Positions 1-12,702 of a stretch of DNA of 64,000 nt are shown piece after piece (the stretch's first letter is position 1; every line of letters begins with the position of its first letter). Both the position numbers and the translations under genes were made by a program. The DNA is from Gemmatimonadota bacterium (GTDB taxonomy: Bacteria; Gemmatimonadota; Gemmatimonadetes; Gemmatimonadales; Gemmatimonadaceae). Location of the stretch: NCBI GenBank assembly GCA_040388625.1, contig JAZKBK010000003.1:558001-622000 (forward strand), given 5' to 3'. The notes below the pieces were generated by a model. The model did not search any database, was not told where the DNA came from, and saw only the letters and a program-made list of their open reading frames with translations.

Positions 1-3
1 ATT

Positions 4-561
4 TTACCGAGATATTCTTTCCTCTACCTTCTTCCCCGCATGCGTAGCCGCCGCTAGGACGGCCGGTGTTTTGCCTCTCGGAAATACAGTCGCGGACGTT
101 GACCATCTTCCATGTGGGTCGCCGCCAATGATGAAGAGTACGGGTTCGGGACAGTTGTAGAGGTAGGATCCTGCAATGCGTCGCATCGAGTTATGATCTT
201 TGGGGCTGGGTGTCGGAGCCGCACTCGGATGGAAGTGCCACTCGCCGAGATAGAAGCCCTCTCCCTGTCGCCAGTAGTGGTCCAGCATGCGTTGGAGTCC
301 ATTAACGCCTCTGTAGAACCACGTCGAGCCGAACTTCGAGTCAATGGAGGGAGAAGTAACTCGATCTACGATCGCGCAATCGTGCCCATCGCTGTAATGA
401 CCGATGAGAATTCCTCCAGTCTCCCCTGAGCGAGCTCGCACGCACTCTTCGAGCATCAATTTCACACTAGCATCGCCAACGCATAGGCCGAAACGCAAGT
501 CTTCAGACCAGTGTTCCAGATCAGACACTGAGCACACGCCGGAGTCCCAAGAATAGACCAT
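4..561 (-). CDS. cap3: Cap3-like JAB/MPN isopeptidase of a CBASS operon
   Basis: Predicted zinc isopeptidase of the JAB/JAMM family, which in type II CBASS removes the conjugate that Cap2 places on the CD-NTase. The JAMM signature is intact: a Glu in ETGGILIG, then GEWHFHP and a downstream SPKD, giving the E...HxH...SxxD metal site. It is the last gene of the four-gene minus-strand operon. The start is uncertain. ATG at 561 has a purine-rich GGAAG just upstream. GTG at 528 would overlap the cap2 stop by only 8 bases (about 174 residues). ATG at 618 gives a long, unconserved-looking extension. About 185 residues is in the usual range for a stand-alone JAB protein. The family assignment is secure; the role rests on the neighbours. 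Confidence 0.87.
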   Translation of the reverse strand: MVYSWDSGVCSVSDLEHWSEDLRFGLCVGDASVKLMLEECVRARSGETGGILIGHYSDGHDCAIVDRVTSPSIDSKFGSTWFYRGVNGLQRMLDHYWRQGEGFYLGEWHFHPSAAPTPSPKDHNSMRRIAGSYLYNCPEPVLFIIGGDPHGRWSTSATVFPRGKTPAVLAAATHAGKKVEERISR

Positions 562-2365
562 TTTCTTCCACGCGCTCAAATACCACAAGCTCAGATGCAT
601 CCGACTCTGACTGCACAAGCTCTACCAGATGCTGCAGTGCGGATGATGCCAACATCCACACTTCATCACCGCGCGCTGGGAATACCGGATGCCAGCAACC
701 GACACCTTCGCGAGGCCACTCTGCGTCGCGAAACCGCTCTGCTTGTCGATCGAGCCATGGGCGTAACGCAGTCAACATATCCTCCATTAGAAACGATTCA
801 CCGATAGAAAAAAACGAAAATCCCGCCCACGCGAATAGTCCGAGCGAAATCGAGACAAATATCTTCGGGCTGTTCCACCGGTACGTAGACAGCGCGTGAG
901 CTACCGCATTCTCGCCTGTGGCATCAATAATGATGTCCGTCGTGCGCAACAACGCATGGGATACCTCGTCATCTGGGGGGAATGCCTGAGTGATTGCACG
1001 GACTTCAGTACGGGCTGACATTGCGTTGAGCCGGTCCGCGAGTGCTGCGGCCTTAAAGCTGCCTACGTCCGCCAGCGTGAGCGTATGGCGGACGAGATTT
1101 CCCGCCATTACGAGGTCGTGATCGTATACGGTCAGGCGACGCAACCCACCGCGCACCAGCATCTCTCCTATAGCCGACCCAAGCGCACCAGCACCGATCA
1201 AGACCACCTCTGCGTCGGTCAGTACTTCAGGAAGCTGCCCGCGCGCGGCCACTGTATCCGCATGCCAATTTTCGGAATGGAGCCATGTTAGCGAACATTC
1301 GTCACGGAAGGCCGCCAATCGGGTCACGTCGGTGGGGCGTGCTCGTCCGGGTCTGAACCCAGGCGATGACATACCTGTTTCGATAGGAATCTCAGGTAGT
1401 TGTAGCGCCTGCCAGAACATGTTCCTCGCCGCGCCATCCACCACTGCCGGAATCGGGAAGCCAACCAAGAGGCGCGACGCACCGCCAAAGCGTGTGCGCT
1501 CCAGAAGCCGCTGCAGCGCCTCGTCTAGATTGATATCTTGCTCGGCTGCTGCTCGGCGAAGTTCACCCCAAGTCATCGGAGCCTTCCACGGCTCGATGTG
1601 CGGGGTTCCATTGAACCGAAGCCACAATCCATCTTCGGACGGACGCTCAGGATCGTTGATATAAGTACCCCAACGTGGCGCGTACACCTCGCGGCCTCCC
1701 GGATCGTGGAAGCTTTTCGCGACCAGCACCGGTGGCCGCTGCCGAAGCCGCACTAGTCTGACCACACCATAGCGGGCCTTCTCACCATCCCATGTCTCCA
1801 GCGAATCGACGTTCTCGCCGAACGCGACGAGCGGCTTCGGTAACGAGCCGAAGTCCGGGAGCTCGAATGGGTCACCGGGCCGAACGAGCCCGCCACACGC
1901 CGCCACTTCAAGCCATCGGCGTGTTCGCTCCAGCCGCCAACGTAGGCGCCCGGCGACTGAAAATGGTTCCCGGTCGACGCCTTGGCGGCCCAAGGCACGC
2001 ACGCCCGTGTCGACGCAGATTCGCCCAGTTCGCCAAGGGCGACCGACGTTGGCTGGACGGTTCAAAAGCTGGTGCGGAAATGTGGCTTCGACACTGTTCC
2101 GCATGGCCGGCTGGAGATGGATGTAACCCCACGGATATGTGGCTTCGACAAGCACCACCCAGTCGCTTCGCCTGGGCACACCGTGCCCTTCAGTAGGAAT
2201 GGTGAATCGACAGCTTATCGTCCAGCAGCGCTCGACAGTGTTCCATTGCCACGCCTCGAGCACATCGACGCCATCAAGCACCTCAAGTGCGTCACGCGCA
2301 TCGTTGAGTGCTTGCGAAGGTACAGGCGCTGCTAACTTGGGCGACAGCGGACGCCTTAACCCCAT
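521..2365 (-). CDS. cap2: Cap2-like E2-E1 fusion, ubiquitin-ligase-like
   Basis: Predicted two-domain conjugating enzyme. The N-terminal E2-like part (about 1-160) carries a candidate catalytic Cys117 in GRICVDT. The C-terminal E1/ThiF-like adenylating domain (about 380-614) has the nucleotide loop GAGALGS at 391-397, and Cys557 in EGVGCWHPVF as the likely E1 thioester cysteine. In characterised type II CBASS, Cap2 adenylates the C-terminus of the CD-NTase, transfers it through the E1 and E2 cysteines and conjugates it to a target, which primes the synthase. ATG at 2365 overlaps the CD-NTase stop by 10 bases, so translation is probably coupled. The length of 614 residues fits Cap2. Fold and family are clear; the cysteine assignments come from motif position. 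Confidence 0.92.
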   Translation of the reverse strand: MGLRRPLSPKLAAPVPSQALNDARDALEVLDGVDVLEAWQWNTVERCWTISCRFTIPTEGHGVPRRSDWVVLVEATYPWGYIHLQPAMRNSVEATFPHQLLNRPANVGRPWRTGRICVDTGVRALGRQGVDREPFSVAGRLRWRLERTRRWLEVAACGGLVRPGDPFELPDFGSLPKPLVAFGENVDSLETWDGEKARYGVVRLVRLRQRPPVLVAKSFHDPGGREVYAPRWGTYINDPERPSEDGLWLRFNGTPHIEPWKAPMTWGELRRAAAEQDINLDEALQRLLERTRFGGASRLLVGFPIPAVVDGAARNMFWQALQLPEIPIETGMSSPGFRPGRARPTDVTRLAAFRDECSLTWLHSENWHADTVAARGQLPEVLTDAEVVLIGAGALGSAIGEMLVRGGLRRLTVYDHDLVMAGNLVRHTLTLADVGSFKAAALADRLNAMSARTEVRAITQAFPPDDEVSHALLRTTDIIIDATGENAVAHALSTYRWNSPKIFVSISLGLFAWAGFSFFSIGESFLMEDMLTALRPWLDRQAERFRDAEWPREGVGCWHPVFPARGDEVWMLASSALQHLVELVQSESDASELVVFERVEENGLFLGLRRVLSV

Positions 2366-3480
2366 CGCTCCCCGGACGTTGGAATGATCGTCGGTCCGCC
2401 CCGTGGAGAATACCCGCCGCCGTCACCTCCTTCATTATTCCCGCCGCGCGCAGGCCCAAGCGGAAATGTCGTGCCGAAGAGTTTCTGCCAAAGCTGCGTC
2501 GCCGTTTCGCGAGAGTCGCTATCGAATGCCTGCCTCGCGATGGCCGCCGCAGGCTTCAGCTTCTCATAGAACACTTTGAAGTCGGCGGGAGTGAGACGAT
2601 GAAGAACATTGTGAGCTGGCACCCCATGATCCGAAACAACGGGGATGCGCTCGAGCGCGACGTCAACTTCATAACGGCGCACCATCTCTTCGAGCGCCAA
2701 TGTCACACCTTCCGCGATGCTCGAAATACCGTTCGGACAGCAGACGCCGATCAAATGCTCGGCCGGATATCCTTTGGGATATTTTGGTTCTGGATTGATC
2801 CGTCTCCACCACTTCACCGCTTTCACTACGTTCACGTAGTGCCCGCTGCACTGCCTGTTCTTCTCCCAGGTGAACCGAATCTGCTCTAGCGGATTCGTAT
2901 CGTCCCACCCCTGAGCATCGCGATCAGGAATGCGAAGCGGGTCGAGTTTCCACTGTGGGGTCTGCCCTGCGCGCTGTAGGCTATTAGCACGCATCGCGCT
3001 CGGTACCCAGTCCAGCGACGGTTGCCAATCTTCCTCGTCTAGCGCCGCTTCAGAACGAATACTTTCGGCGCGGAGTGCTTTGGCGAGTATCTCAGACGGG
3101 GCTGACGTCACCACAACGTCAAGGCTCACTTGGGACATCGTAATGCCAATCGAGCGGCCTTGGAATTCCCATTTCCCCGCATAATGCGTGTTAAGAAAAG
3201 GAACGAAGACATTCATCGCCTGTTGTGGCGTGTACTCGGCCTCAGACAGCGTGGTAACAACGACAATGTCCACGTCAGCACGGTTGTCATTCTTGGGCCG
3301 CGTCGCCGTTTTGCGTCGGTAGCTGCCTTGCAGAAAATCGCCGATGATGACGCCTTTCATCGTTGCATGGCTGTTGAGACGCTCCCGTAATAACCGGTGG
3401 GCATCTCGCAGTTCGGCTTCTTGACTTGTCGTCAGCCGAATATCTGCGAGGAACTTGTCAAACTGAGATTTTAGATCCAC
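2356..3480 (-). CDS. CD-NTase, CBASS cyclic oligonucleotide synthase
   Basis: Predicted cGAS/DncV-like nucleotidyltransferase that makes a cyclic di- or trinucleotide alarm signal on phage infection. The active-site pattern is complete: GSYRRKT at 52-58 (G-S loop), Asp69 and Asp71 in ADVDIVVV, and the third metal ligand Asp121 in VSLDVVV. The last 35 or so residues form a Gly-rich flexible tail ending in ERWG. A C-terminal glycine is what a Cap2 E1 would adenylate. The start is GTG at 3480, with GGAGGGG about 9 bases upstream inside cap4, overlapping the cap4 stop by 23 bases. Pairing with a SAVED effector suggests a clade D-like enzyme making a cyclic trinucleotide, but clade and product cannot be fixed by eye. 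Confidence 0.93.
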   Translation of the reverse strand: MDLKSQFDKFLADIRLTTSQEAELRDAHRLLRERLNSHATMKGVIIGDFLQGSYRRKTATRPKNDNRADVDIVVVTTLSEAEYTPQQAMNVFVPFLNTHYAGKWEFQGRSIGITMSQVSLDVVVTSAPSEILAKALRAESIRSEAALDEEDWQPSLDWVPSAMRANSLQRAGQTPQWKLDPLRIPDRDAQGWDDTNPLEQIRFTWEKNRQCSGHYVNVVKAVKWWRRINPEPKYPKGYPAEHLIGVCCPNGISSIAEGVTLALEEMVRRYEVDVALERIPVVSDHGVPAHNVLHRLTPADFKVFYEKLKPAAAIARQAFDSDSRETATQLWQKLFGTTFPLGPARGGNNEGGDGGGYSPRGGPTIIPTSGERWG

Positions 3481-5044
3481 GGGCAGGTACCCCTCCAGAA
3501 ATCGTGGTTAATGGAAACGGTAGAGACACAGAAGGTGTATACGCCGTGGGCTGAGTCCGATCGAAGTCGTGCTCATACATTATGCAGCGCCCCCAGACAC
3601 GCGCGACCTGGCCCAAAAAGAACATCAGTCCGTTGGGGGCTGCGGCAAAGACGTGCACTACTGTGTTGCGCGGACGTTGCTGTTGCGCTGCTGCAACTAT
3701 CTCAGCCGCGTCGTCAGCCAAGCGACGCGCGTGCGCTGCATCGCGAATCGATCCGCTGCCAGTACCACTACACGGATTTAATTCAATGATTTGTCCAACG
3801 GCTGGCAGATGCTCGCGAATGAACAATTCGGCCTCGGCGATCGCCGCCCGCGACACGCTCAGGACGACCGCGACATCGGGTGCGCCGGTAAGTTCGATAA
3901 CACGCTGTGTCCAGACATGCTCGTCATGGCATGGGGGGCCGTCGGCAAGACACCATGTCGTGCGCCCGTTCACACCGCGTTGGACCGGGTTAGCAACGAC
4001 ACCCGTCTTCGGATCGAGGCACCACCCTGCGGTGAATGCAACGGACAAGTGCGTATCCAGATGCAGGTCGACCGCTTCCGCACCGTTTATCGCATCTTGG
4101 AGGTAGTCCCGCACCGCTGGTGCCAACTGTTTGTTCCAAAGCGATGCGTCGCGGATATTCCGACCATCAAAATGCGGCAAGAGACACAGAATGCGCTCTG
4201 TTTCGTCGTCCATGTTTTCCGCCCAACGCCGAAAGCTCCGAATCCCGATCTGACGACCTGCCTCTCGCGCTGTCGCAGGTCGCGGCTGATGTAAGCCTTC
4301 TCGGGCAATCACCTCGGCAAGTTGGTCGCGTGTAAACTGACGCTGTCCTGCCTGCATCAATTTTCCCGGCAACCCATCGTACAGATTGGCCACTTTCCCA
4401 TCAGGATATGGCCTCATCCCAGCGTTGATCAGTAGCGGATTCAAGTACCTGAGCAGTCCGTCGAGCGGTGGATGGCTCGTCCGAATACGCAATGTCCGAA
4501 GCACCAGAAACAGCTCCTCGTCAGTACTAAGACCGAGGTGCGACCGCCACATGGCGCGCGTGCGTCCCATCTTGCTCTTTGGGCCACCGGCTGCCAATCG
4601 GTCAAGGCGCAGGGACTCGTTTGCGTTGCTGTAGAGTTCTCCCAAGACGTCGTCGTGGGCAATCGGCCACGGTGCAAGGATGATGAACCTCGCCTCGCGG
4701 CCGGTAGGCGCGTGCCGCCGCTGGGCGTCGCGGAGCCGTTGCAGGAGCGAAACCATCTCAGCTCCGATAAAGGCTGGGTCGGTCAGGGCTGCTGCAGTGA
4801 ACGCGCCATCCTGGGCGACGTGAAACTTGACCTGGAAGTAGTCCGCACGGACGTCGGGGTCCGTCCCGTCACGGTGCGTACCACCATAGAACACCGCGAC
4901 GTCGTCAAAGACACGTATCCCATCGACTTCAAATCCCACGGCCGTGACAATGGGGTTGTCCTGGAATAATCGGGTCGCCTCCGTCCAAAAGACTCGGGCT
5001 TGATATTCGTCGCCTTGGAGACGCGGAACGATTGCGTTCGCCAT
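3458..5044 (-). CDS. cap4: Cap4-like effector: DNA endonuclease fused to SAVED sensor
   Basis: Predicted CBASS effector. The N-terminal domain (about 1-150) resembles the Cap4/DUF4297 nuclease: GDEYQARVFW near residue 11, Asp47/Asp48 in FDDVAVFY, and QVK at 71-73, giving a PD-(D/E)XK-like D...QxK site. The C-terminal SAVED domain (about 330-495) shows the typical stretch beginning HVFAAAPNGLMFFLG at 464, followed by a YEHDF motif. In characterised homologues SAVED binds a cyclic di- or trinucleotide, and the protein assembles and degrades double-stranded DNA, killing the infected cell. It is the first gene of the operon, so the effector is transcribed ahead of its own synthase. The upstream region is described in the next entry. 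Confident in both domains; the ligand is unknown. Confidence 0.9.
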   Translation of the reverse strand: MANAIVPRLQGDEYQARVFWTEATRLFQDNPIVTAVGFEVDGIRVFDDVAVFYGGTHRDGTDPDVRADYFQVKFHVAQDGAFTAAALTDPAFIGAEMVSLLQRLRDAQRRHAPTGREARFIILAPWPIAHDDVLGELYSNANESLRLDRLAAGGPKSKMGRTRAMWRSHLGLSTDEELFLVLRTLRIRTSHPPLDGLLRYLNPLLINAGMRPYPDGKVANLYDGLPGKLMQAGQRQFTRDQLAEVIAREGLHQPRPATAREAGRQIGIRSFRRWAENMDDETERILCLLPHFDGRNIRDASLWNKQLAPAVRDYLQDAINGAEAVDLHLDTHLSVAFTAGWCLDPKTGVVANPVQRGVNGRTTWCLADGPPCHDEHVWTQRVIELTGAPDVAVVLSVSRAAIAEAELFIREHLPAVGQIIELNPCSGTGSGSIRDAAHARRLADDAAEIVAAAQQQRPRNTVVHVFAAAPNGLMFFLGQVARVWGRCIMYEHDFDRTQPTAYTPSVSLPFPLTTISGGVPARGSKISV

Positions 5045-5605
5045 GTCAGAGATGACGGCTAGGGAAACTGAGCTACTGCGGTTGACACTGGGTATCGATA
5101 ATATACCGAAAAAAACCCGGCACTACCTCCTTATGAATCCGTGTTAGGCCCTCGCTGCCTCACCGCACAATTAGGAAGGTCTGGTCTCTTCTAATCGGCG
5201 CCATGGTGGTGCCTTTCGATTTTTGTGAGGAACCAGCCTGCAGCAACCGGGGGCAACCGGCCTTAATTGGCGTGCGGATCCAGGGGCCCGTCAGCCGCCC
5301 CGACGCATGGCTAGGCTGTCTAGAGAGCTACAGGGTCGTCGACGTACCCATTCCACATCTCTCGGTAGCTTGGCCGTCTGGATTGTGTCCTCAACCTAGG
5401 GAAAATGTCCCAAAAAGGCGCGCAAATGGCCTGTGACGGAGCTAGGGACCTAGTGATAAGATTCACACACATTTAGACTTCAGTGAATATTTTTCGCGAC
5501 TAGTGAATAAAGTGGGCCTTTTTTTTGCCTACCTACCTTGCATTCGCCTTGAGTGACTAATTGTCTAATAAAGAATTAAAAAGTGAAGGAATTTCACGGG
5601 GTGTG
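5045..5605. promoter_or_regulatory. divergent control region between CBASS and fic
   Basis: About 560 AT-rich bases separate the two divergent genes, and no convincing gene lies here; a 77-codon frame at 5203-5436 has no family features. GGTAT at 5091-5095 and ATACC at 5103-5107 form a small inverted repeat around an AT-rich core about 50 bases before the cap4 start. Close to fic, AGTGAATA occurs at 5482-5489 and again at 5502-5509, about two helical turns apart, with a related TAGTGATA at 5451-5458. These look like possible operator half-sites. GAAGGA at 5585-5590 could be the fic ribosome site. No promoter is assigned firmly. Confidence 0.4.
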
Positions 5606-7519
5606 ATGTCTTTTCACGGGCGGCCACTCCATGAGCCTGCCTCGCCTGCTGGCTACGCCGGGCTCATTCGCCTATATGACCTCCAGCTCCCCCTGCCGCC
5701 GCGGCTAGCGGCCGTGGCGGAGCGGCACCATCCACGGTCGACTGCCGAATGGTTGCTGGTGACCCCCAGACACAGACCTGAGGAGACACTGGCAGGGCAG
5801 TTGGAGTTTGCGCTCAAGTGGGAGGGCGTTGATCTCGGCGTAATCAACGCTCTGACCAAGATTGTCCCCCCCGCAGAATTTGAGGCGCTCATCCGAGCAA
5901 CGCCGACCGGCAGCTACGCACGGAGGATTTGGTTCTTGTACGAGTGGCTCACTGGCCAAACACTGGCACTTCCGAATGCGGGGAAGGTCCGCGCGGTGCC
6001 CGTGCTGAACCCGGCTCAGCAGTTTGCCCTTTCGAGGGGGGCCATGTCGACACGCCACCGCGTCATCGACAACCTTCCTGGTACGCGTGCGTTCAGCCCA
6101 CTCGTACGCAGGACTCAGGCCCTCAATACAGTTGCCGCAAAACAGTTAAACCGCCGAGCTCGCGAAGTACTGGGCCGCACGCATGGCGACGTCATTGCGA
6201 GAGCTGCGGCATTTCTGCTCCTGAGCGATAGCCGCTCCTCGTTCGACATCGAAGGCGAGCGTCCTTCGCGCCAGAGGACTGCGCGCTGGGCGCAGGCGAT
6301 CGGGCAAGCTGGCGCTCGACCGTTGAGTCTCGACGAACTCGAACGCCTCCAGCAAATCGTCATTGGCGATGCTCGCTTCGTCCATCTCGGGCTGAGGGAA
6401 GACGGCGGCTTTGTTGGCGATCGTGACCGTCTCACCCAGGAGCCGCTGCCCGAGCACATAAGCGCACGTGCCAAAGACCTCCGCGATCTGCTTACCGGGG
6501 TCGTCGAGTACGTATCCCGCGCCGTTGCAGGAGGTCTCGACCCTGTAGTTGCAGCAGCGACCGCGGCGTTCGGATTTGTGTACATCCATCCATTCGAAGA
6601 CGGCAACGGTCGACTACACAGATGGTTGATCCATCATGCGTTGGCAATCACTGGCTATAATCCGCCCGGCGTAGTCTTTCCGGTAAGCGCAGCAATCCTT
6701 CGCGAGCTGGATGCCTACAAGCGCGTGCTCGAATCATACTCCAAGCCGCTACTTCCCTACATCAACTGGGAGCCGACCGAGCGCGGCAACGTGAACGTGC
6801 TGAACGAGACCGCTCAGTATTACCGATACTTCGATGCCACTGCGCATGCAGAGTTTCTGTATGAATGCGTCGCTACGACGGTGGAGCGTGACCTTCCGGA
6901 CGAGGTAGCGTATCTCGAAGGTTATGATCGATTCGCGACACGAGTACAGCTGATTGTAGATTTGCCAGCCCGCATGGTCGAGCTACTGCATGGCTTCCTG
7001 CAGCAAGGACACGGTCATTTTTCCAAACGCTCGCGCCAAAAGGAGTTTGCTTCACTTACGGGAGATGAAGTCAGCAGCATCGAGCAATTATACGCGGAGT
7101 GCTTCACGCGCGAACTCGCATCAAGCACACCAGTGACTCAGGATAACATCGCTGCAGCTACATCATCGTCATCACCGTCATCACCTACTGCAGCTGTGTT
7201 CTCATCACTCCCAATATCGTCGCAACGGGAGCAGCTCGTCGCCATGGCACGCAAGCTTGTCACTCCGGTCGACATTCCAGCGCTGATTGCGGAAGGAGTT
7301 ATTGCGAAAGAGCGCGGCGCATGGTACGAAGTGCTCGATGGGAAAAGGTTGCCGGAACACGTCACTGCGCAAATTCACGAGTTCCGGTTAGAAGTCGGAG
7401 AACAAGGGCAGCAACGTCAATTCGTGAAGATCCCACCGGTTCGTAAAAGAGCTGTGCGTCTGTATCGAGAACTCACGGGAGAAGACGCGCCCATCGTTTC
7501 CCGGCAACCGCGCACATAG
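5606..7519 (+). CDS. Fic family protein (class II, probable AMP transferase)
   Basis: Predicted Fic-domain enzyme that transfers AMP (or another NMP) to hydroxyl side chains of target proteins. The catalytic motif HPFEDGNGR is complete, with His328 counted from ATG 5606. An inhibitory-helix motif of the S/TxxxE(G/N) type, SSFDIEGE, lies upstream in the chain, placing it in class II Fic proteins with built-in autoinhibition. A Ser-rich linker near residue 520 leads to a C-terminal region of unknown role. ATG 5606 follows GAAGGA; an in-frame TTG at 5561 would add 15 residues. It stands alone, diverging from the CBASS operon. It could be a toxin-like defence protein or a regulatory AMPylator; no separate antitoxin gene is seen. 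Confidence 0.88.
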   Translation: MSFHGRPLHEPASPAGYAGLIRLYDLQLPLPPRLAAVAERHHPRSTAEWLLVTPRHRPEETLAGQLEFALKWEGVDLGVINALTKIVPPAEFEALIRATPTGSYARRIWFLYEWLTGQTLALPNAGKVRAVPVLNPAQQFALSRGAMSTRHRVIDNLPGTRAFSPLVRRTQALNTVAAKQLNRRAREVLGRTHGDVIARAAAFLLLSDSRSSFDIEGERPSRQRTARWAQAIGQAGARPLSLDELERLQQIVIGDARFVHLGLREDGGFVGDRDRLTQEPLPEHISARAKDLRDLLTGVVEYVSRAVAGGLDPVVAAATAAFGFVYIHPFEDGNGRLHRWLIHHALAITGYNPPGVVFPVSAAILRELDAYKRVLESYSKPLLPYINWEPTERGNVNVLNETAQYYRYFDATAHAEFLYECVATTVERDLPDEVAYLEGYDRFATRVQLIVDLPARMVELLHGFLQQGHGHFSKRSRQKEFASLTGDEVSSIEQLYAECFTRELASSTPVTQDNIAAATSSSSPSSPTAAVFSSLPISSQREQLVAMARKLVTPVDIPALIAEGVIAKERGAWYEVLDGKRLPEHVTAQIHEFRLEVGEQGQQRQFVKIPPVRKRAVRLYRELTGEDAPIVSRQPRT

Positions 7520-7840
7520 ATTCGCATTGACACGACGAAACCAGCTCGCGGCTCATATCCACCGCACGCCTTTCCTCAACTCAAATCGCAGTGACGCACG
7601 ATCGACATCGAATGCAACAGCTTGAGATCCGTCGCCACTGAACGGGGTTCCTTGTGGGTCACTTGACAATCCGGTGTAGCGTATATGTATCGCATATATC
7701 TATCGATCGCGCGATTTCGATACCGCGTCGCCGCTGACACGCGTCCCTGTCGTCCAGTTGTCTGCTATCTTGACGGTTAGGTTGTAGGATCTGCCAGATC
7801 GCAGGCCTGGTCCATATGCGACTAGGGCGGTTTAGCACAG
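7520..7840 (+). promoter_or_regulatory. intergenic region with candidate promoter and dyad
   Basis: These 321 bases hold no recognisable gene. TTGACA at 7663-7668 resembles a -35 box. It is followed by a very AT-rich stretch at 7681-7700 that could contain the -10, though no hexamer sits at ideal spacing with a good match. The same stretch is a dyad: TATATG at 7682-7687 and CATATA at 7693-7698, separated by 5 bases, overlapping the presumed -10. This is the arrangement expected of an operator for a repressor. It lies about 140 bases before the DnaB-like gene. Confidence 0.35.
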
Positions 7841-8860
7841 ATGTCCCATTCAGGGGACTCGGAGCGTCATTCCATGCCACCAGCGAAGACCCGCGGCCCG
7901 GCGCCGCAGGGCGGCGTAGTATTGCCAGAGGCGAGCCCGCCCACCAACGCGTCTCACTTAATTAGCGACCGTAAGGAAGTCTTTTATGAGACAATGGTTC
8001 AGCTCGAACGTCTAGTCAGTAATCCAGAACATGCCGGATTCATTCGTACTGGCTTGCACGATGTCGATAGCCTTATCACCGGATTTTCAGCGGGCGATTT
8101 GGTCGTAGTTGGAGGCCGTCCAGCGATGGGCAAGACCAGTTTTGGTCTCGGTTTAACGGTTCGCGCAGCACTCGACCAAGCGACGCCTACCGTTTTCTTT
8201 TCCCAAGAGAGTTCAGCCGAGGCGTTAATGACCCGCGTCATTGCTGCAGAAGCACACGTAAATCAAACGTGTGTACGCACCGGAAGACTCCACACCGATG
8301 ACTTCATGCGCATGGGACGCGCCGCCGGACTACTGTCGCAGGCACCTTTATGGTTCGAATCACTATCGAATGCCACGCTAGCGTCTCTTCGAGAGCGAAT
8401 TTCGGCACTGGTCCAGAATGCCGGCGTTCGTCTAGTCGTGATTGACTATTTGCAATTATTCGAAACCTTGGGCGCGGAGTCGCGGCACCAGGGAGTCGCT
8501 GCAATTTCGCGCGGCTTAAAGAATCTTGCACGTGAGTACAAAATCTCGATCATCATATTGTCGCAATGCTCCCGTGCGCCCGAACAAAGATCAGGGTTCG
8601 ATAAACGTCCGCAACTCCCTGACCTGCGAGATTCCGGCGCAATTGAGGACGATGCAGACATAGTCATGTTCCTTTATAGGCGGGAATACTACGACGTTCT
8701 GGATGGTCGCGACCCGAATGAACCCAATCGATGGGGTGAAATATCAGCCGGTCGCGCAGAGGTAATTATTGCAAAACAACGCAATGGGCCGACTGGGACG
8801 GCATTTGTCGCCTTTGACAGATCCTACTCCCGTTTCGACAATCTTCCGACATCTTCGTAA
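7841..8860 (+). CDS. DnaB-type helicase domain protein lacking the N-terminal domain
   Basis: The protein matches the C-terminal RecA-like helicase domain of replicative DnaB. It has Walker A GRPAMGKT, the H1a-like SQES (DnaB usually SLEMS), Walker B VVIDYLQLF, an LSQCSR stretch, and the H4 region RPQLPDLRDSGAIEDDAD ending in YRREYY. The DnaB-typical IAKQRNGPTG is also present. At 339 residues it is about 120 shorter than DnaB. The helical N-terminal domain that recruits primase and shapes the hexamer is absent and replaced by a Pro-rich leader (about 1-45); the linker helix (about residues 46-60) seems kept. All ATPase motifs look functional, so it is a domain-reduced paralogue, not a decayed dnaB. 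ATG 7874 is an alternative start. It lies 151 bases before the nuclease-like gene. Confidence 0.85.
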   Translation: MSHSGDSERHSMPPAKTRGPAPQGGVVLPEASPPTNASHLISDRKEVFYETMVQLERLVSNPEHAGFIRTGLHDVDSLITGFSAGDLVVVGGRPAMGKTSFGLGLTVRAALDQATPTVFFSQESSAEALMTRVIAAEAHVNQTCVRTGRLHTDDFMRMGRAAGLLSQAPLWFESLSNATLASLRERISALVQNAGVRLVVIDYLQLFETLGAESRHQGVAAISRGLKNLAREYKISIIILSQCSRAPEQRSGFDKRPQLPDLRDSGAIEDDADIVMFLYRREYYDVLDGRDPNEPNRWGEISAGRAEVIIAKQRNGPTGTAFVAFDRSYSRFDNLPTSS

Positions 8861-9011
8861 CGAGAACCTCGTCAGAGCGGTTTACCGGATCCGCTCATCT
8901 ACATGACGCTTAGTCGCGTCGGCGGATTCGGTCTCAACCTGTAACGGATATCGAGTATCAATATGGTCGACACGTGGATTCTGGCTTTTTGACTTTCGGG
9001 AACTTGACCGC

Positions 9012-11192
9012 GTGGGTGTAGGCGACGAAAGTACGCCGACGATCCTGCCTTTTGAGCAGCGTCTCATAGCCATTCAGACGCTGATCAAGCAGGTCGATCC
9101 CGTCACATTTCTAGGGATTACGGCGCTACGAGAGCTTCTGCATTATTCTGCCGATGGTCCTGGAGAGGAAGAGAAACATGGAAAGGCTCAGGTGGCGACC
9201 GAGCTTTTTCAGGCCCTTGCTCTACAATTTCCTGTATCATCGTTTGCTTCCCGGCCCCCGTCTCTCAACGACATCCAGCACATACGGGCAGAGCTAGATG
9301 CGCTCCTCCACCTCTTTTATGAGCGGCGACGACCTAGCGCACGACACGACGGAGTAGATCTGTGGCAGGCAGTCATGGTCGAAGATCTACGACGGGAAAC
9401 GCAGCTCATTCGTAACTGGGGACACTTCGAACAAGTCATACGAATTACGCAAGAGCTTTTCAGTGTCACCGATCCGCAGCTATATCAAGAATGTGGCGTC
9501 ACGGTTCTCGCACTAACAAACATGCTGGTCAGGATGGCAGAACTGATCACGGCACGGCTTAGAGTTCGACGGAGCGTCGTGCAGTGTGTTCGCGATGCCG
9601 GCGACCTTGCAGCAATCGTACAGTGCATAGAGTCCGCTCCAGATGGAATATTCCGGACGGAGGATATCGAGCGCATACGTGCAAGTGATACGATGGAAGA
9701 AGCACGCGATTACGTCAGTTATTGCTTCCACACCACGATTGCAAACGCTTTCATGGTATCGCTCGACGACTTCGCCGGCGCATACAAAGAGCCTGTTGAC
9801 CGCCGGCAGTTAAAGGCTGTGTTAGATGCCTGGAGCTATGAATTTGGAGAGCTTCATAATCAGCAACCGGAACATTTCTTCTTAGCCAATCCAGTATGGG
9901 GTCGACCGTTCATTCGCATAACACCCTCGAACTATTTTCTTCCGATTGGCGACCTTTTGCAAGGCTTTCTCATCGAGATGTGTGAGGCGGTTGTCAACGC
10001 TAGCTCATTACACGAAAAGTACCGTAAAATACGGAGCTCATATCTTGAGAAGCGCGTGGAGCAGTTGTGCCAGCAAGCCCTATCTCCAGGAGATGTGTAC
10101 AGAGGTGTTTTGTGGCAAGATCCCCAGGATGGCGCTACATACGAGAATGACATCCTAGTTCACTTGGATTCCTGCATCGTTATTATCGAGGCAAAATCAC
10201 ACTCGATTCGAGATGCGCGGCGCGGTGGAGATAAAAGCTTGCGAGCCGCCATCAATGACACCATTGTCGCACCAGCCGAACAAGGGCGTCGATTCGAAGC
10301 GTACCTCATGTCATCTCCTGGGGTCCGTAGGTTGTCGACGCGCGCAAGAACGCAATTTCAGATTGACACCAGCCAGATTGTCAGGACTGTCTGTATTAGC
10401 GTCACGCTTGAAAGCCTCGGCTCACTGAACGCTAGATGGTCGCACCTTGTGGAAGCAGGTTTCATTGACCCGCAACTGATACCCACACCATCAATTCCCT
10501 TAGCCGACTTAGAGAATGTCTTCGATCTCCTGCCGGACGCCGCCACTCGTCTGCACTATCTGCTGCGTCGTGGCGAGCTAGCGGCACACGCGAATATTTA
10601 TGGAGATGAAGCTGACTTTCTCGCACTCTATTTGGATACGACATTCAATATCGGCGATTTCGAATTCTCGAGCAATTTGCTCGACATATGGGGGCTCTCA
10701 CACAAGATCATGAGGTATTTTGTAGCTGGTATGCGAGGTCAAGTAGTTGAAAAACCTAAGTTGCGTTTGACGAAGCGATGGAGTGCTGCACTCGAACGCC
10801 TGCAGCGAACACGTCCACCCAAATGGGTTGAAGTCACCTTTGCCTTATTGGAAGTACCGCCCTCCGCCCAAAGTGCATTCAATGAGCGTATAAAGGACAT
10901 CAGGGCAAATGCATCTAAGCGAAAAAAACACGTTTCTCTAGGATCGTTCCATATGCACGGTGGTCCCACAGCACGCCCCTTCGCATTAGGAGGAATCGTC
11001 TATCGGCAGATCGATCGAGCAAAAGCAGAGGATTTTGCGTTTGTCACAGCCGCCGAAGCGATGGAACAGGCAGGTGTGACGGCTGCATTAGTTATCGGCG
11101 AAAACATGACGACGCAGGATTTTCCGTATACGATTTTGGGGCTTGTGGGGACTAGTCTCGCGCGCCGACCTATTCGTTCGGATGTGCGCTAG
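9012..11192 (+). CDS. large protein with PD-(D/E)XK nuclease core
   Basis: I do not recognise the family. The central part has a clear PD-(D/E)XK arrangement: Asp380 in ENDILVHL, 13 residues on Glu393 in IIEAKS, and Lys395, followed by a QGRRFEAY stretch like the fourth motif of such nucleases (NERD and restriction-type). The N-terminal 360 residues look mostly helical and may recognise a partner or DNA. The C-terminal 300 residues, basic around 580-650, have no motif I can name. No signal peptide or membrane segment is seen. The only usable start is GTG at 9012. Same strand and spacing suggest it works with the preceding DnaB-like helicase. Sequence is clearly more AT-rich than core genes. 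A DNA-cutting role is inferred from the motif. Confidence 0.7.
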   Translation: MGVGDESTPTILPFEQRLIAIQTLIKQVDPVTFLGITALRELLHYSADGPGEEEKHGKAQVATELFQALALQFPVSSFASRPPSLNDIQHIRAELDALLHLFYERRRPSARHDGVDLWQAVMVEDLRRETQLIRNWGHFEQVIRITQELFSVTDPQLYQECGVTVLALTNMLVRMAELITARLRVRRSVVQCVRDAGDLAAIVQCIESAPDGIFRTEDIERIRASDTMEEARDYVSYCFHTTIANAFMVSLDDFAGAYKEPVDRRQLKAVLDAWSYEFGELHNQQPEHFFLANPVWGRPFIRITPSNYFLPIGDLLQGFLIEMCEAVVNASSLHEKYRKIRSSYLEKRVEQLCQQALSPGDVYRGVLWQDPQDGATYENDILVHLDSCIVIIEAKSHSIRDARRGGDKSLRAAINDTIVAPAEQGRRFEAYLMSSPGVRRLSTRARTQFQIDTSQIVRTVCISVTLESLGSLNARWSHLVEAGFIDPQLIPTPSIPLADLENVFDLLPDAATRLHYLLRRGELAAHANIYGDEADFLALYLDTTFNIGDFEFSSNLLDIWGLSHKIMRYFVAGMRGQVVEKPKLRLTKRWSAALERLQRTRPPKWVEVTFALLEVPPSAQSAFNERIKDIRANASKRKKHVSLGSFHMHGGPTARPFALGGIVYRQIDRAKAEDFAFVTAAEAMEQAGVTAALVIGENMTTQDFPYTILGLVGTSLARRPIRSDVR

Positions 11193-11420
11193 AACAGTAT
11201 TAACAGCGATTGAATGGAGTCTGCACGGATTTAGGTGAAGATCTCACAGCAAAATGACTCATCTCCGCTTGGCAGCAGTGGGCGCTCCTACCTACTTCGC
11301 GCGGTACAGCGTGCCGGCTCACCCACGCGAACTCTCTCAGCACGACTGTCTCAACTAGCACCCGACTGCGAGCAGTCCACTTACCGCCGGAAGTTCACCG
11401 AAAAGGGCGCGATTTTCGCC

Positions 11421-11647
11421 GCGGCTGCCCCAGCGCGCGTGCTCTCGAACGATGCAGCACTCAACCGGTGTCTCGCCATTGCGGGGCTCGGCGTGCCGCT
11501 CACTTTCGAGGGTCACGTACGCGGCGACGCAATCGAGCGCGGCAGCTCGTCTCGATCCTCGAAGAGTTCTGCGCGCCGTTTCCCGGCTACTACCTGTACT
11601 ACCCGCAGCGGCAACTGGCGGCGCATAACGAGGCACGTGCTCGCTAG
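11421..11647 (+). pseudogene. LysR-type regulator, C-terminal remnant with frameshift
   Basis: Two adjacent frames together read as the end of a LysR substrate-binding domain. Frame one (11421-11542) gives VLSNDAALNRCLAIAGLGVP, the usual stretch before the last strand. After a one-base frame change near 11540, the next frame (11543-11647) gives QLVSILEEFCAPFPGYYLYY and PQRQLA, ending at TAG 11645-11647. This is the family's typical Gly-Xaa-Leu-Val...Tyr-Pro tail. The DNA-binding half is missing; 11193-11420 holds nothing I can name. It is a decayed fragment, consistent with turnover at the island edge. Confidence 0.65.
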
Positions 11648-11696
11648 GCTGGTGGTTGCGATATCTCTCCCCATGGCACCTAGTCCGAATGCGCGC

Positions 11697-12149
11697 TCAG
11701 TCTTCGGAGCGCGGCCGCCCATTACTCATAAGACCTAATTCAAGATTCTCGAATCGCTCGTTTACCCAGCCTCGCGCGATCTCCAGCGACGAGGAGAGTT
11801 TGTTCCCCATCGCCAAGGTGTCTTCCGCATCTAACAATTCCTTCGCTAGCGCGATGCACCAATCCATGGCATACTCCGCCTCGTTGAGCGGCAACTGCTT
11901 GGTGCCATGTTGCCCGTTCACAACGTCACATACTCGGTTCCACCGGCTACGAAGCGTGCTCCAGTCGTCTGCAAGTTCTCCTGTGGACCGGACCGCTGAA
12001 TCAGGCAGCCGGAAACGCAAGGCATCGAGCGCCCTCGTACGCTTCGCCTGCTCGCGGTCGTGCTCAGCATTATGCGTCTTGCAGAGGCCACCGAGGTAGG
12101 GCGCGAGATCACAGCCCGAGCGAGAGCACGTACGGCAAGATCGCTTCAT
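11697..12149 (-). CDS. small Cys-rich protein with putative zinc finger
   Basis: A 150-residue protein I cannot assign to a family. The N-terminus carries CRTCSRSGC and then GGLCKTHNAEH, a CxxC...C...CxxH arrangement like the zinc-binding head of some phage and HNH-type proteins; no HNH catalytic pattern follows. The rest is predicted helical and charged, with a Trp-rich middle. Composition and codon use look like a real gene and unlike the antisense frames around it. It sits between the LysR remnant and the tRNA and belongs to the island. A mobile-element accessory or DNA-binding role is possible but unproven. Confidence 0.5.
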   Translation of the reverse strand: MKRSCRTCSRSGCDLAPYLGGLCKTHNAEHDREQAKRTRALDALRFRLPDSAVRSTGELADDWSTLRSRWNRVCDVVNGQHGTKQLPLNEAEYAMDWCIALAKELLDAEDTLAMGNKLSSSLEIARGWVNERFENLELGLMSNGRPRSED

Positions 12150-12630
12150 GGTCCCGTCAAGAATGAGGGCGCAGGGCTAAAAGTCAGACGGGTCCTTTGC
12201 ACACGGCAATTGCGCTGGCTGCCGCCGGCTCACGAAGTTTGTCATCGTCTTTGGGACTTTTCAACTGCTGTGATTACGCATCGTGGCTTTGCTTGGTGGA
12301 GCTCAAAGAATAATTCGCGGGCACGCAGTGTTTCCCATCGGTTGATCCATGCACCTGTAGGTAGAGCACTACTGATGCCGGTCTCTTTGCTACGAAGCGT
12401 CCGAATGACCGGCATGGTTTATTTGGGTCACTACAGCACGTTGAATGACACATTCTCGCCTGCCGGTGTTTGGGATTGCAGCAGCGGACGCGTTGTCCGG
12501 ACACGGACGATGTGTTCGATTGTGCTGACTCAATCAGGGAAACCGTGGCTTCGTACCCTGTTTTGTACCCAGTCCGATCGCACGACGATGGCGCTGCGCT
12601 CTAAATTGGCTTCCCACAATCACTTACAAG
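12150..12630. other. island edge without a recognised gene
   Basis: About 480 bases between the small Cys-rich gene and the tRNA. Frames on both strands (for example 12274-12504 minus) have no family features. I see no integrase, and no second copy of the tRNA 3' end in the window, so the attachment site cannot be confirmed. GTACCC occurs twice at 12556-12573 around a short T-rich core, with no further structure. Confidence 0.4.
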
Positions 12631-12702
12631 AGGCACCGGTCAGAATCGAACTGACGAATAGGAGATTTGCAGTCTCCCGCCTTACCACTTGGCCACGGTG
12701 CC
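12631..12702 (-). tRNA. tRNA-Cys (anticodon GCA)
   Basis: Read on the minus strand, the acceptor stem GGCACCG pairs with CGGTGCC and is followed by a U discriminator. The anticodon loop holds GCA (complement of TGC at 12668-12670), flanked by a GGAGA/TCTCC stem. The T arm contains the GTTCGATTC-like loop. CCA is not encoded. It separates the accessory island on its 3' side from core-type genes, the usual place for island integration. Confidence 0.95.

What the first reader, a model, noticed from the sequence alone, without database searches (positions are those of the whole stretch)
7841..11192. Domain-reduced DnaB helicase next to a PD-(D/E)XK nuclease: candidate unnamed defence pair
A DnaB-like protein that keeps the ATPase motifs but has lost the primase-binding N-terminal domain is followed, 151 bases on and in the same direction, by a 726-residue protein with Asp380, Glu393-x-Lys395 and a trailing Gln/Tyr motif. 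Both are AT-rich relative to the core, and lie between CBASS/Fic and a tRNA. Helicase plus nuclease is a common design in phage defence, but I cannot match this pair to a named system. Association is inferred from position only.
Basis: inference. Interest (0 to 1): 0.8.

Follow-up and report, generated by a model that had tools for sequence, protein, structure and literature searches.

The report
Lone antiphage-type nuclease beside stray DnaB
A bacterium carries, inside a 69-kb mobile island inserted at a tRNA gene, a nuclease related to known single-gene anti-phage proteins, next to a cut-down copy of the replication helicase; the two genes look like separate passengers rather than a two-part defence system.

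Summary
In detail: 7841-8860 encodes a DnaB linker helix plus ATPase domain with no N-terminal domain, and 9012-11192 a PD-(D/E)XK protein with D380, E393-x-K395 and Q424. The proposed pair is not supported. None of 64 loci holding a homologue of the 726-aa protein has a DnaB gene in the stored flank (up to about 9 kb each side), although the same query finds true DnaBs at E 1e-60 or better.

The 726-aa protein belongs to an unnamed, widespread, apparently single-gene nuclease family. It reaches the GAPS1 anti-phage family by profile-profile comparison (E 1.3e-6, all catalytic residues aligned). Its model also matches the solved defence protein Upx over both the helical and nuclease parts (Z 12.7). 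It is below every curated family cut-off.

The helicase is a fast-evolving paralogue of DnaB. Its nearest relatives are chromosomal DnaBs of the same genus (about 50% identity), and all ATPase motifs are kept.

Both genes lie at the right end of a 68.7-kb tRNA-Cys island, whose empty site is seen in a 94%-identical sister genome. The island has its own integrase, metal-resistance genes, type II CBASS, a Fic protein and Abi-alpha. Most likely the nuclease is a solo defence cargo and the DnaB fragment separate cargo of unknown role.

The parts
7841..8860 (+). P0001: NTD-less DnaB paralogue, 339 aa (linker helix about 44-66, RecA-like ATPase domain 68-334)
   Evidence: PF03796 3.5e-81; 63 of 86 invariant DnaB positions kept, including all ATPase motifs; long branch 2.1
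8114..8137 (+). Walker A of P0001 (GRPAMGKT, residues 92-99), without the intein found at this site in the genome's own DnaB
   Evidence: sequence; alignment
8861..9011 (+). 151-bp gap between the two genes; no terminator-like site; one promoter-like match at 8814-8842, no excess over shuffles
9012..11192 (+). P0002: 726-aa nuclease: helical N-domain (about 14-290), PD-(D/E)XK core (about 334-465), helical and alpha/beta C-terminal part
   Evidence: AlphaFold2 model pLDDT 87.8, pTM 0.88; family alignment A3
10149..10196 (+). codons of catalytic D380 (10149-10151), E393 (10188-10190) and K395 (10194-10196)
   Evidence: conserved in 49 homologues
5561..7519 (+). Fic protein, 652 aa, PADLOC candidate PDC-S24 (4e-188); neighbouring cargo
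4..5044 (-). type II CBASS: JAB, E1-E2, CD-NTase, SAVED nuclease; neighbouring cargo
12615..12672 (.). right attachment repeat (3' half of tRNA-Cys), direct repeat of contig C3:501884-501942, 68.7 kb to the left
12630..12702 (-). tRNA-Cys (GCA), integration site of the element
   Evidence: empty site in genome G143

Best explanation
The two genes are independent cargo at the tRNA-proximal end of a 68.7-kb integrated island. The 726-aa protein is a single-gene PD-(D/E)XK nuclease of the broad type that includes GAPS1 and Upx: a large helical domain in front of a restriction-endonuclease-like core, with an extra C-terminal part. It most likely works alone: the helical domain senses something made by an infecting phage, or holds the nuclease in check, and the core then cuts nucleic acid using D380, E393 and K395 with a metal ion. 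The 339-aa protein is a diverged, N-domain-less DnaB paralogue that can probably still form a ring and hydrolyse ATP; its own task is unknown. Shown here: the island, the homologies, the catalytic residues, and the lack of conserved pairing. Inferred: nuclease activity, anti-phage effect, sensing by the helical domain.
For: No DnaB in 61 homologous loci (910 kb of flank; 53 with at least 3 kb on both sides) or in 3 further loci from the same phylum-level search; best tblastn E 0.38 against 1e-60 or better for real DnaBs. No recurrent neighbour beyond scattered tyrosine recombinases in 5 loci. GapS1 model hit in 5 of 49 family members, best 8.8e-6; hhalign to a GapS1 alignment E 1.3e-6, probability 90.7, with E346, D380, E393, K395 and Q424 aligned to E284, D316, D329, K331 and Q362 (alignment A2 gives E 1.9e-6). 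Fold match to Upx (9wuf): Z 12.7, 393 residues; N-domain alone Z 12.0, 246 of 323 residues, next row Z 7.0. Upx is listed as a defence system with nuclease mechanism (PMC10855318) and as Gao Upx (PMC13249269). Defence genes near some homologues: two Gabija loci, AriA, Old, RT. Island: direct repeats, integrase PF00589 2.6e-17, empty site in sister genome.
Against: No activity of any kind is shown. The Upx match was not seen by sequence, and helical folds can give Z up to about 13 by common arrangement. P0002 itself does not hit GapS1, only its relatives do. The two genes share the lowest GC3 of the island (0.53 and 0.52), which could mean joint acquisition. No PADLOC hit for P0002.
Confidence: 0.7

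Rival explanations
1. A lineage-specific two-gene system: the DnaB paralogue joins or mimics the replication fork and the nuclease cuts when phage attacks or remodels the replisome.
For: Same strand, 151 bp apart; the two genes have matching, unusually low GC3; P0001 keeps its whole ATPase machinery despite fast evolution.
Against: No DnaB at any of 64 homologous loci; no orthologue of P0001 closer than about 50% identity found in 288 order genomes, plasmids or phages, so co-occurrence has no second case.
Confidence: 0.12
2. The DnaB fragment is a replication gene of the mobile element itself (autonomous replication of the excised island), and the nuclease is unrelated defence cargo.
For: Integrated element with its own tyrosine integrase; a DnaB RecA core without its N-terminal part was active as a helicase in a mycobacteriophage case (PMC4523182).
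Against: It lies at the far end from the integrase; no replication initiator or primase was identified next to it; nearest relatives are host DnaBs of the genus, not plasmid or phage ones.
Confidence: 0.12
3. The DnaB fragment is a decaying duplicate of chromosomal dnaB without function, and the nuclease alone matters.
For: Truncated, very long branch (2.1 changes per site), 23 of 86 invariant positions lost.
Against: Intact 339-codon frame; all ATPase, arginine-finger and sensor residues kept, losses concentrated elsewhere.
Confidence: 0.2
4. The 726-aa protein is a general DNA repair or housekeeping nuclease, not a defence protein.
For: Weak NERD similarity below cut-off; many homologous loci sit among ordinary genes.
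Against: Rare and patchy: 5 of 288 order genomes and 5 of 395 phylum genomes, on plasmids and in islands, related to GAPS1.
Confidence: 0.15

Closest known systems
GAPS1 (NCBIfam NF047931, antiphage_GapS1)
   Same: Single gene; PD-(D/E)XK core preceded by a shared pre-nuclease stretch; all five catalytic-type residues align; hhalign E 1.3e-6.
   Different: GAPS1 is about 455-520 aa; P0002 is 726 aa with a longer helical front and an extra C-terminal part, and has E-x-K where GAPS1 has D-x-K. Below the GapS1 cut-off.
Upx (PDB 9wuf; listed as a Gao defence system)
   Same: Helical domain plus nuclease domain superpose over 393 residues, Z 12.7; N-domain alone Z 12.0.
   Different: Upx is 1212 residues and seems to hold a second helical domain (770-1108 also matches the N-domain); no sequence similarity was detected.
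NERD nuclease-related domain (PF08378)
   Same: Same D...E-x-K...Q nuclease core, residues 346-433.
   Different: 17.4 bits against a cut-off of 22.1; the rest of the protein has no counterpart.
Replicative helicase DnaB
   Same: P0001 keeps the linker helix and the full ATPase domain; about 50% identity to DnaBs of its own genus.
   Different: No N-terminal domain; 23 of 86 otherwise invariant positions changed; below the DnaB equivalog cut-off (306.8 against 385.25 bits).
RecA-core-only DnaB relatives of mycobacteriophages (PMC4523182)
   Same: DnaB ATPase core without the N-terminal domain; a truncated Wildcat Gp80 core kept helicase activity.
   Different: P0001 is a host-type paralogue, not evidently from that phage clade (no close phage match).

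Membership tests
Conserved helicase-nuclease defence pair | Both genes co-occur next to each other in independent genomes | tested here: not met
   0 of 64 homologous loci hold a DnaB in the stored flank; positive controls at 1e-60 or better
GAPS1 (NF047931) | Score above the curated cut-off (320 bits) | tested here: not met
   No match for P0002 and none in its genome at E up to 10
GAPS1 (NF047931) | Detectable homology over the nuclease core with catalytic residues aligned | tested here: met
   hhalign E 1.3e-6 and 1.9e-6, 160-165 columns; reference GapS1 sequence verified at 1.3e-119
GAPS1 (NF047931) | Protects against phage as a single gene | not testable with these tools
   needs plaque assays
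Upx | Upx fold: helical domain plus PD-(D/E)XK nuclease | tested here: inconclusive
   Z 12.7 (rmsd 4.8, 393 aligned) full model; Z 12.0 (rmsd 4.7, 246 aligned) N-domain alone, next row Z 7.0; Foldseek itself gave no E below 0.001
Upx | Sequence similarity to Upx | tested here: inconclusive
   No PDB sequence match to Upx with profiles A2, A3 or A5; presence of 9wuf in that sequence copy was not verified
NERD (PF08378) | Score above gathering cut-off 22.1 | tested here: not met
   17.4 bits; 7 of 49 family members match at E up to 0.1
PD-(D/E)XK nucleases | D, (D/E)-x-K and trailing Q conserved, on the right fold | tested here: met
   A3 invariants and near-invariants; model matches Nt.BspD6I, Can2 and McrC cores at Z 6-11
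Replicative DnaB | N-terminal (DnaG-binding) domain present | tested here: not met
   No PF00772 at this locus; the genome's full match is on C1, no remnant upstream
Replicative DnaB | Intact Walker A/B, catalytic Glu, sensor and arginine finger | tested here: met
   G97 K98 T99, E123, D202, Q242, R245, R263, K312 and R314 kept
tRNA-integrated genomic island | Flanking direct repeats of the tRNA 3' end, own integrase, empty site in a relative | tested here: met
   Repeats C3:501884-501942 and 570615-570672; integrase C3:509258-510541; G143 flanks contiguous

The most novel reading that the evidence does not exclude
The N-domain-less DnaB paralogue acts as a decoy or guarded replisome part: it inserts into host or phage replication rings, and when a phage hijacks or displaces it the adjacent nuclease is released. 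This would be a two-gene defence that monitors the replicative helicase and has arisen only in this lineage.
Probability: 0.08. Interest if true: 0.75.

Novelty: new variant of a known kind. Interest (0 to 1): 0.42.

Why it matters
The nuclease defines a widespread family (about 60 genomes or plasmids from many phyla found here) that PADLOC, Pfam and NCBIfam do not name, and it links two separately described anti-phage proteins, GAPS1 and Upx, as probable branches of one group. That makes a short list of single-gene candidates directly testable. The DnaB fragment is an unusual case of a host replication gene duplicated, trimmed and rapidly diverged on a mobile island.

Tried and rejected
Pair hypothesis: tested with 64 loci and rejected as a conserved system. 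Phage origin of the nuclease: no match in phage records or viral contigs. Phage or plasmid origin of the DnaB fragment: best matches only 38-42% identical, below host-genus DnaB; viral contig scan empty. Recurrent third partner: none. SEC-C tail: present only in a more distant branch, absent in the 49 closer homologues. PDB sequence searches for the nuclease gave only chance hits. E. coli genomes: no DNA match. One search used a query file holding several proteins, so its output mixes queries; it was replaced. In one search, the two steps of the script that used that file (blastp against own DnaB, extraction of DnaB segments) were affected at most by weak extra rows; the blastp was repeated cleanly. 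Promoter and terminator scan: no excess over shuffles.

Full report
Observation. Both genes exist as described. P0001 (7841-8860, 339 aa) and P0002 (9012-11192, 726 aa) lie on the + strand 151 bp apart. P0001 matches the DnaB C-terminal domain at 3.5e-81 from residue 68 to 334 and no N-terminal domain. P0002 has D380, E393-x-K395 and Q424 at the stated positions. In an alignment with 48 homologues E346, D380, K395 and Q424 are invariant, and E378, E393 and R427 are at least 90% conserved. In nine more divergent sequences E346, E378, D380, E393, K395 and Q424 are all invariant.

Setting. The window is part of contig C3 of a 3.84-Mb genome whose family also contains a Gemmatimonadetes MAG. The tRNA-Cys at 12630-12702 is an integration site. 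A 59-base copy of its 3' half lies 68.7 kb to the left at C3:501884-501942. In sister genome G143, 94% identical in the flanks, the sequences left of that copy and right of the tRNA are contiguous and overlap by the repeat, which is the empty site. The element therefore spans about C3:501884-570672, up to window position 12672. It carries a tyrosine integrase (C3:509258-510541, PF00589 2.6e-17), a resolvase-type recombinase, Schlafen AlbA_2 and Abi_alpha proteins. By reading of the translations it also holds many metal-resistance and efflux genes. It further carries type II CBASS and a Fic protein matching PADLOC candidate PDC-S24. P0001 and P0002 are the last two clear genes before the tRNA.

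Is it a pair? Homologues of P0002 were collected from species genomes (55 loci) and plasmids (7 hits, 6 loci used). Of 61 loci, 53 have at least 3 kb on both sides, with 910 kb of flank in all. None contains a DnaB. A clean repeat with tblastn, adding three more loci from the same phylum-level search, gave a best E of 0.38, while five true DnaB loci scored 1e-60 or better. Clustering of neighbours within 6 kb found no recurrent partner; the most frequent family is tyrosine recombinases in five loci. P0002-type proteins therefore occur without a DnaB neighbour nearly everywhere. In the window the two genes do share the lowest GC3 of the island, 0.53 and 0.52 against 0.63 on average, so a local joint acquisition cannot be excluded.

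What the nuclease is. P0002 hits no PADLOC or NCBIfam family and only a sub-threshold NERD match. The AlphaFold2 model from 49 sequences is confident (pLDDT 87.8, pTM 0.88): a long helical domain, a PD-(D/E)XK core around residues 334-465, and a further helical and alpha/beta C-terminal part. The best structural match among chains re-aligned by VIA-align is Upx, Z 12.7 over 393 residues, above nicking endonucleases that cover only the core at Z 10.7. The helical domain alone again picks Upx, Z 12.0 over 246 of 323 residues, with the next row at Z 7.0. The second match falls on residues 770-1108 of Upx rather than the first part, which suggests that Upx has two related helical domains (inference). 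Foldseek itself gave no E below 0.001, so this fold link is good but not proof. Upx is listed among nuclease-type defence systems (PMC10855318) and as Gao Upx (PMC13249269). At sequence level, five of 49 family members hit the NCBIfam GapS1 anti-phage model, best 8.8e-6, over a segment of about 170 residues in the one member inspected (L052). A GapS1-like protein named by a structure-based survey (PMC12774648) lies in a Klebsiella prophage; the record was fetched and its GapS1 gene found at 1.3e-119. An alignment of five such proteins matches the P0002 family by hhalign at E 1.3e-6 and 1.9e-6, with all five catalytic-type residues aligned. The family is rare and patchy: 5 of 288 genomes in the order and 5 of 395 in the phylum. 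It is absent from phage records, and some homologues sit near Gabija, AriA, Old or reverse-transcriptase genes. No control neighbourhood set was scanned, so enrichment in defence islands is not shown.

What the DnaB fragment is. P0001 begins at the linker helix of DnaB and keeps the full ATPase domain. No N-terminal remnant lies upstream. Its closest relatives among 288 genomes of the order are the chromosomal DnaBs of its own genus, 48-50% identical; plasmid and phage relatives are 38-42%. In a tree it is one very long branch (2.1 changes per site), so its exact place is unsure. Of 86 positions invariant in 33 other DnaBs it keeps 63, including Walker A, catalytic Glu123, Walker B, Gln242, Arg263, Lys312 and Arg314, and loses 23, with clusters at 172-175, 188-189 and 216-218. 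A DnaB core without its N-terminal region can still unwind DNA in a mycobacteriophage example (PMC4523182). It is therefore probably an active ATPase that no longer docks primase (inference). Its task is not known.

Conclusion. The most likely reading is two separate cargo genes of one mobile defence and metal-resistance island. One is a solo nuclease related to GAPS1 and Upx but outside the curated limits of any named family. The other is a trimmed and diverged DnaB paralogue. The novelty lies in the unnamed nuclease family and its link between two known systems, not in the pair.

Noticed in passing
L108 (contig C1:636001-645000), dnaB about C1:639190-642012, - strand: The genome's own full-length dnaB is interrupted in frame at its P-loop by an intein-like insert of about 486 aa (begins Cys, ends His-Asn); the three other genomes of the genus have dnaB frames of normal length (494 aa). 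The island copy P0001 lacks the insert.
   Followed up: partly
contig C3:501884-570672 (window 1-12672 is its right end): 68.7-kb island in tRNA-Cys carrying copper/RND/mercury-type efflux and resistance genes (recognised by eye from translations) together with CBASS, Fic, Abi_alpha and Schlafen-type proteins.
   Followed up: partly
window 5561-7519: Fic protein matches PADLOC single-gene candidate PDC-S24 at 4e-188.
   Followed up: no
window 11193-12610: 1.4 kb between the nuclease and the tRNA has only weak ORFs; the 167-aa one hits no Pfam family. Possibly decayed sequence at the attachment end.
   Followed up: no
contig C3:505031-508136: A resolvase-domain protein (PF00239, 7e-8) followed by a 630-aa protein with zinc-ribbon-like and coiled-coil sequence: looks like a serine recombinase split into two frames.
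   Followed up: no
L006, L011, L012, L014: A more distant branch of the nuclease family ends in a SEC-C zinc-binding motif (NDPCxCGSGxKxKKC), absent from the window's branch.
   Followed up: partly
contig C3:502134-503122: A GNAT-like protein next to a small DUF1778-like protein at the left end of the island, resembling a toxin-antitoxin pair (by eye).
   Followed up: no
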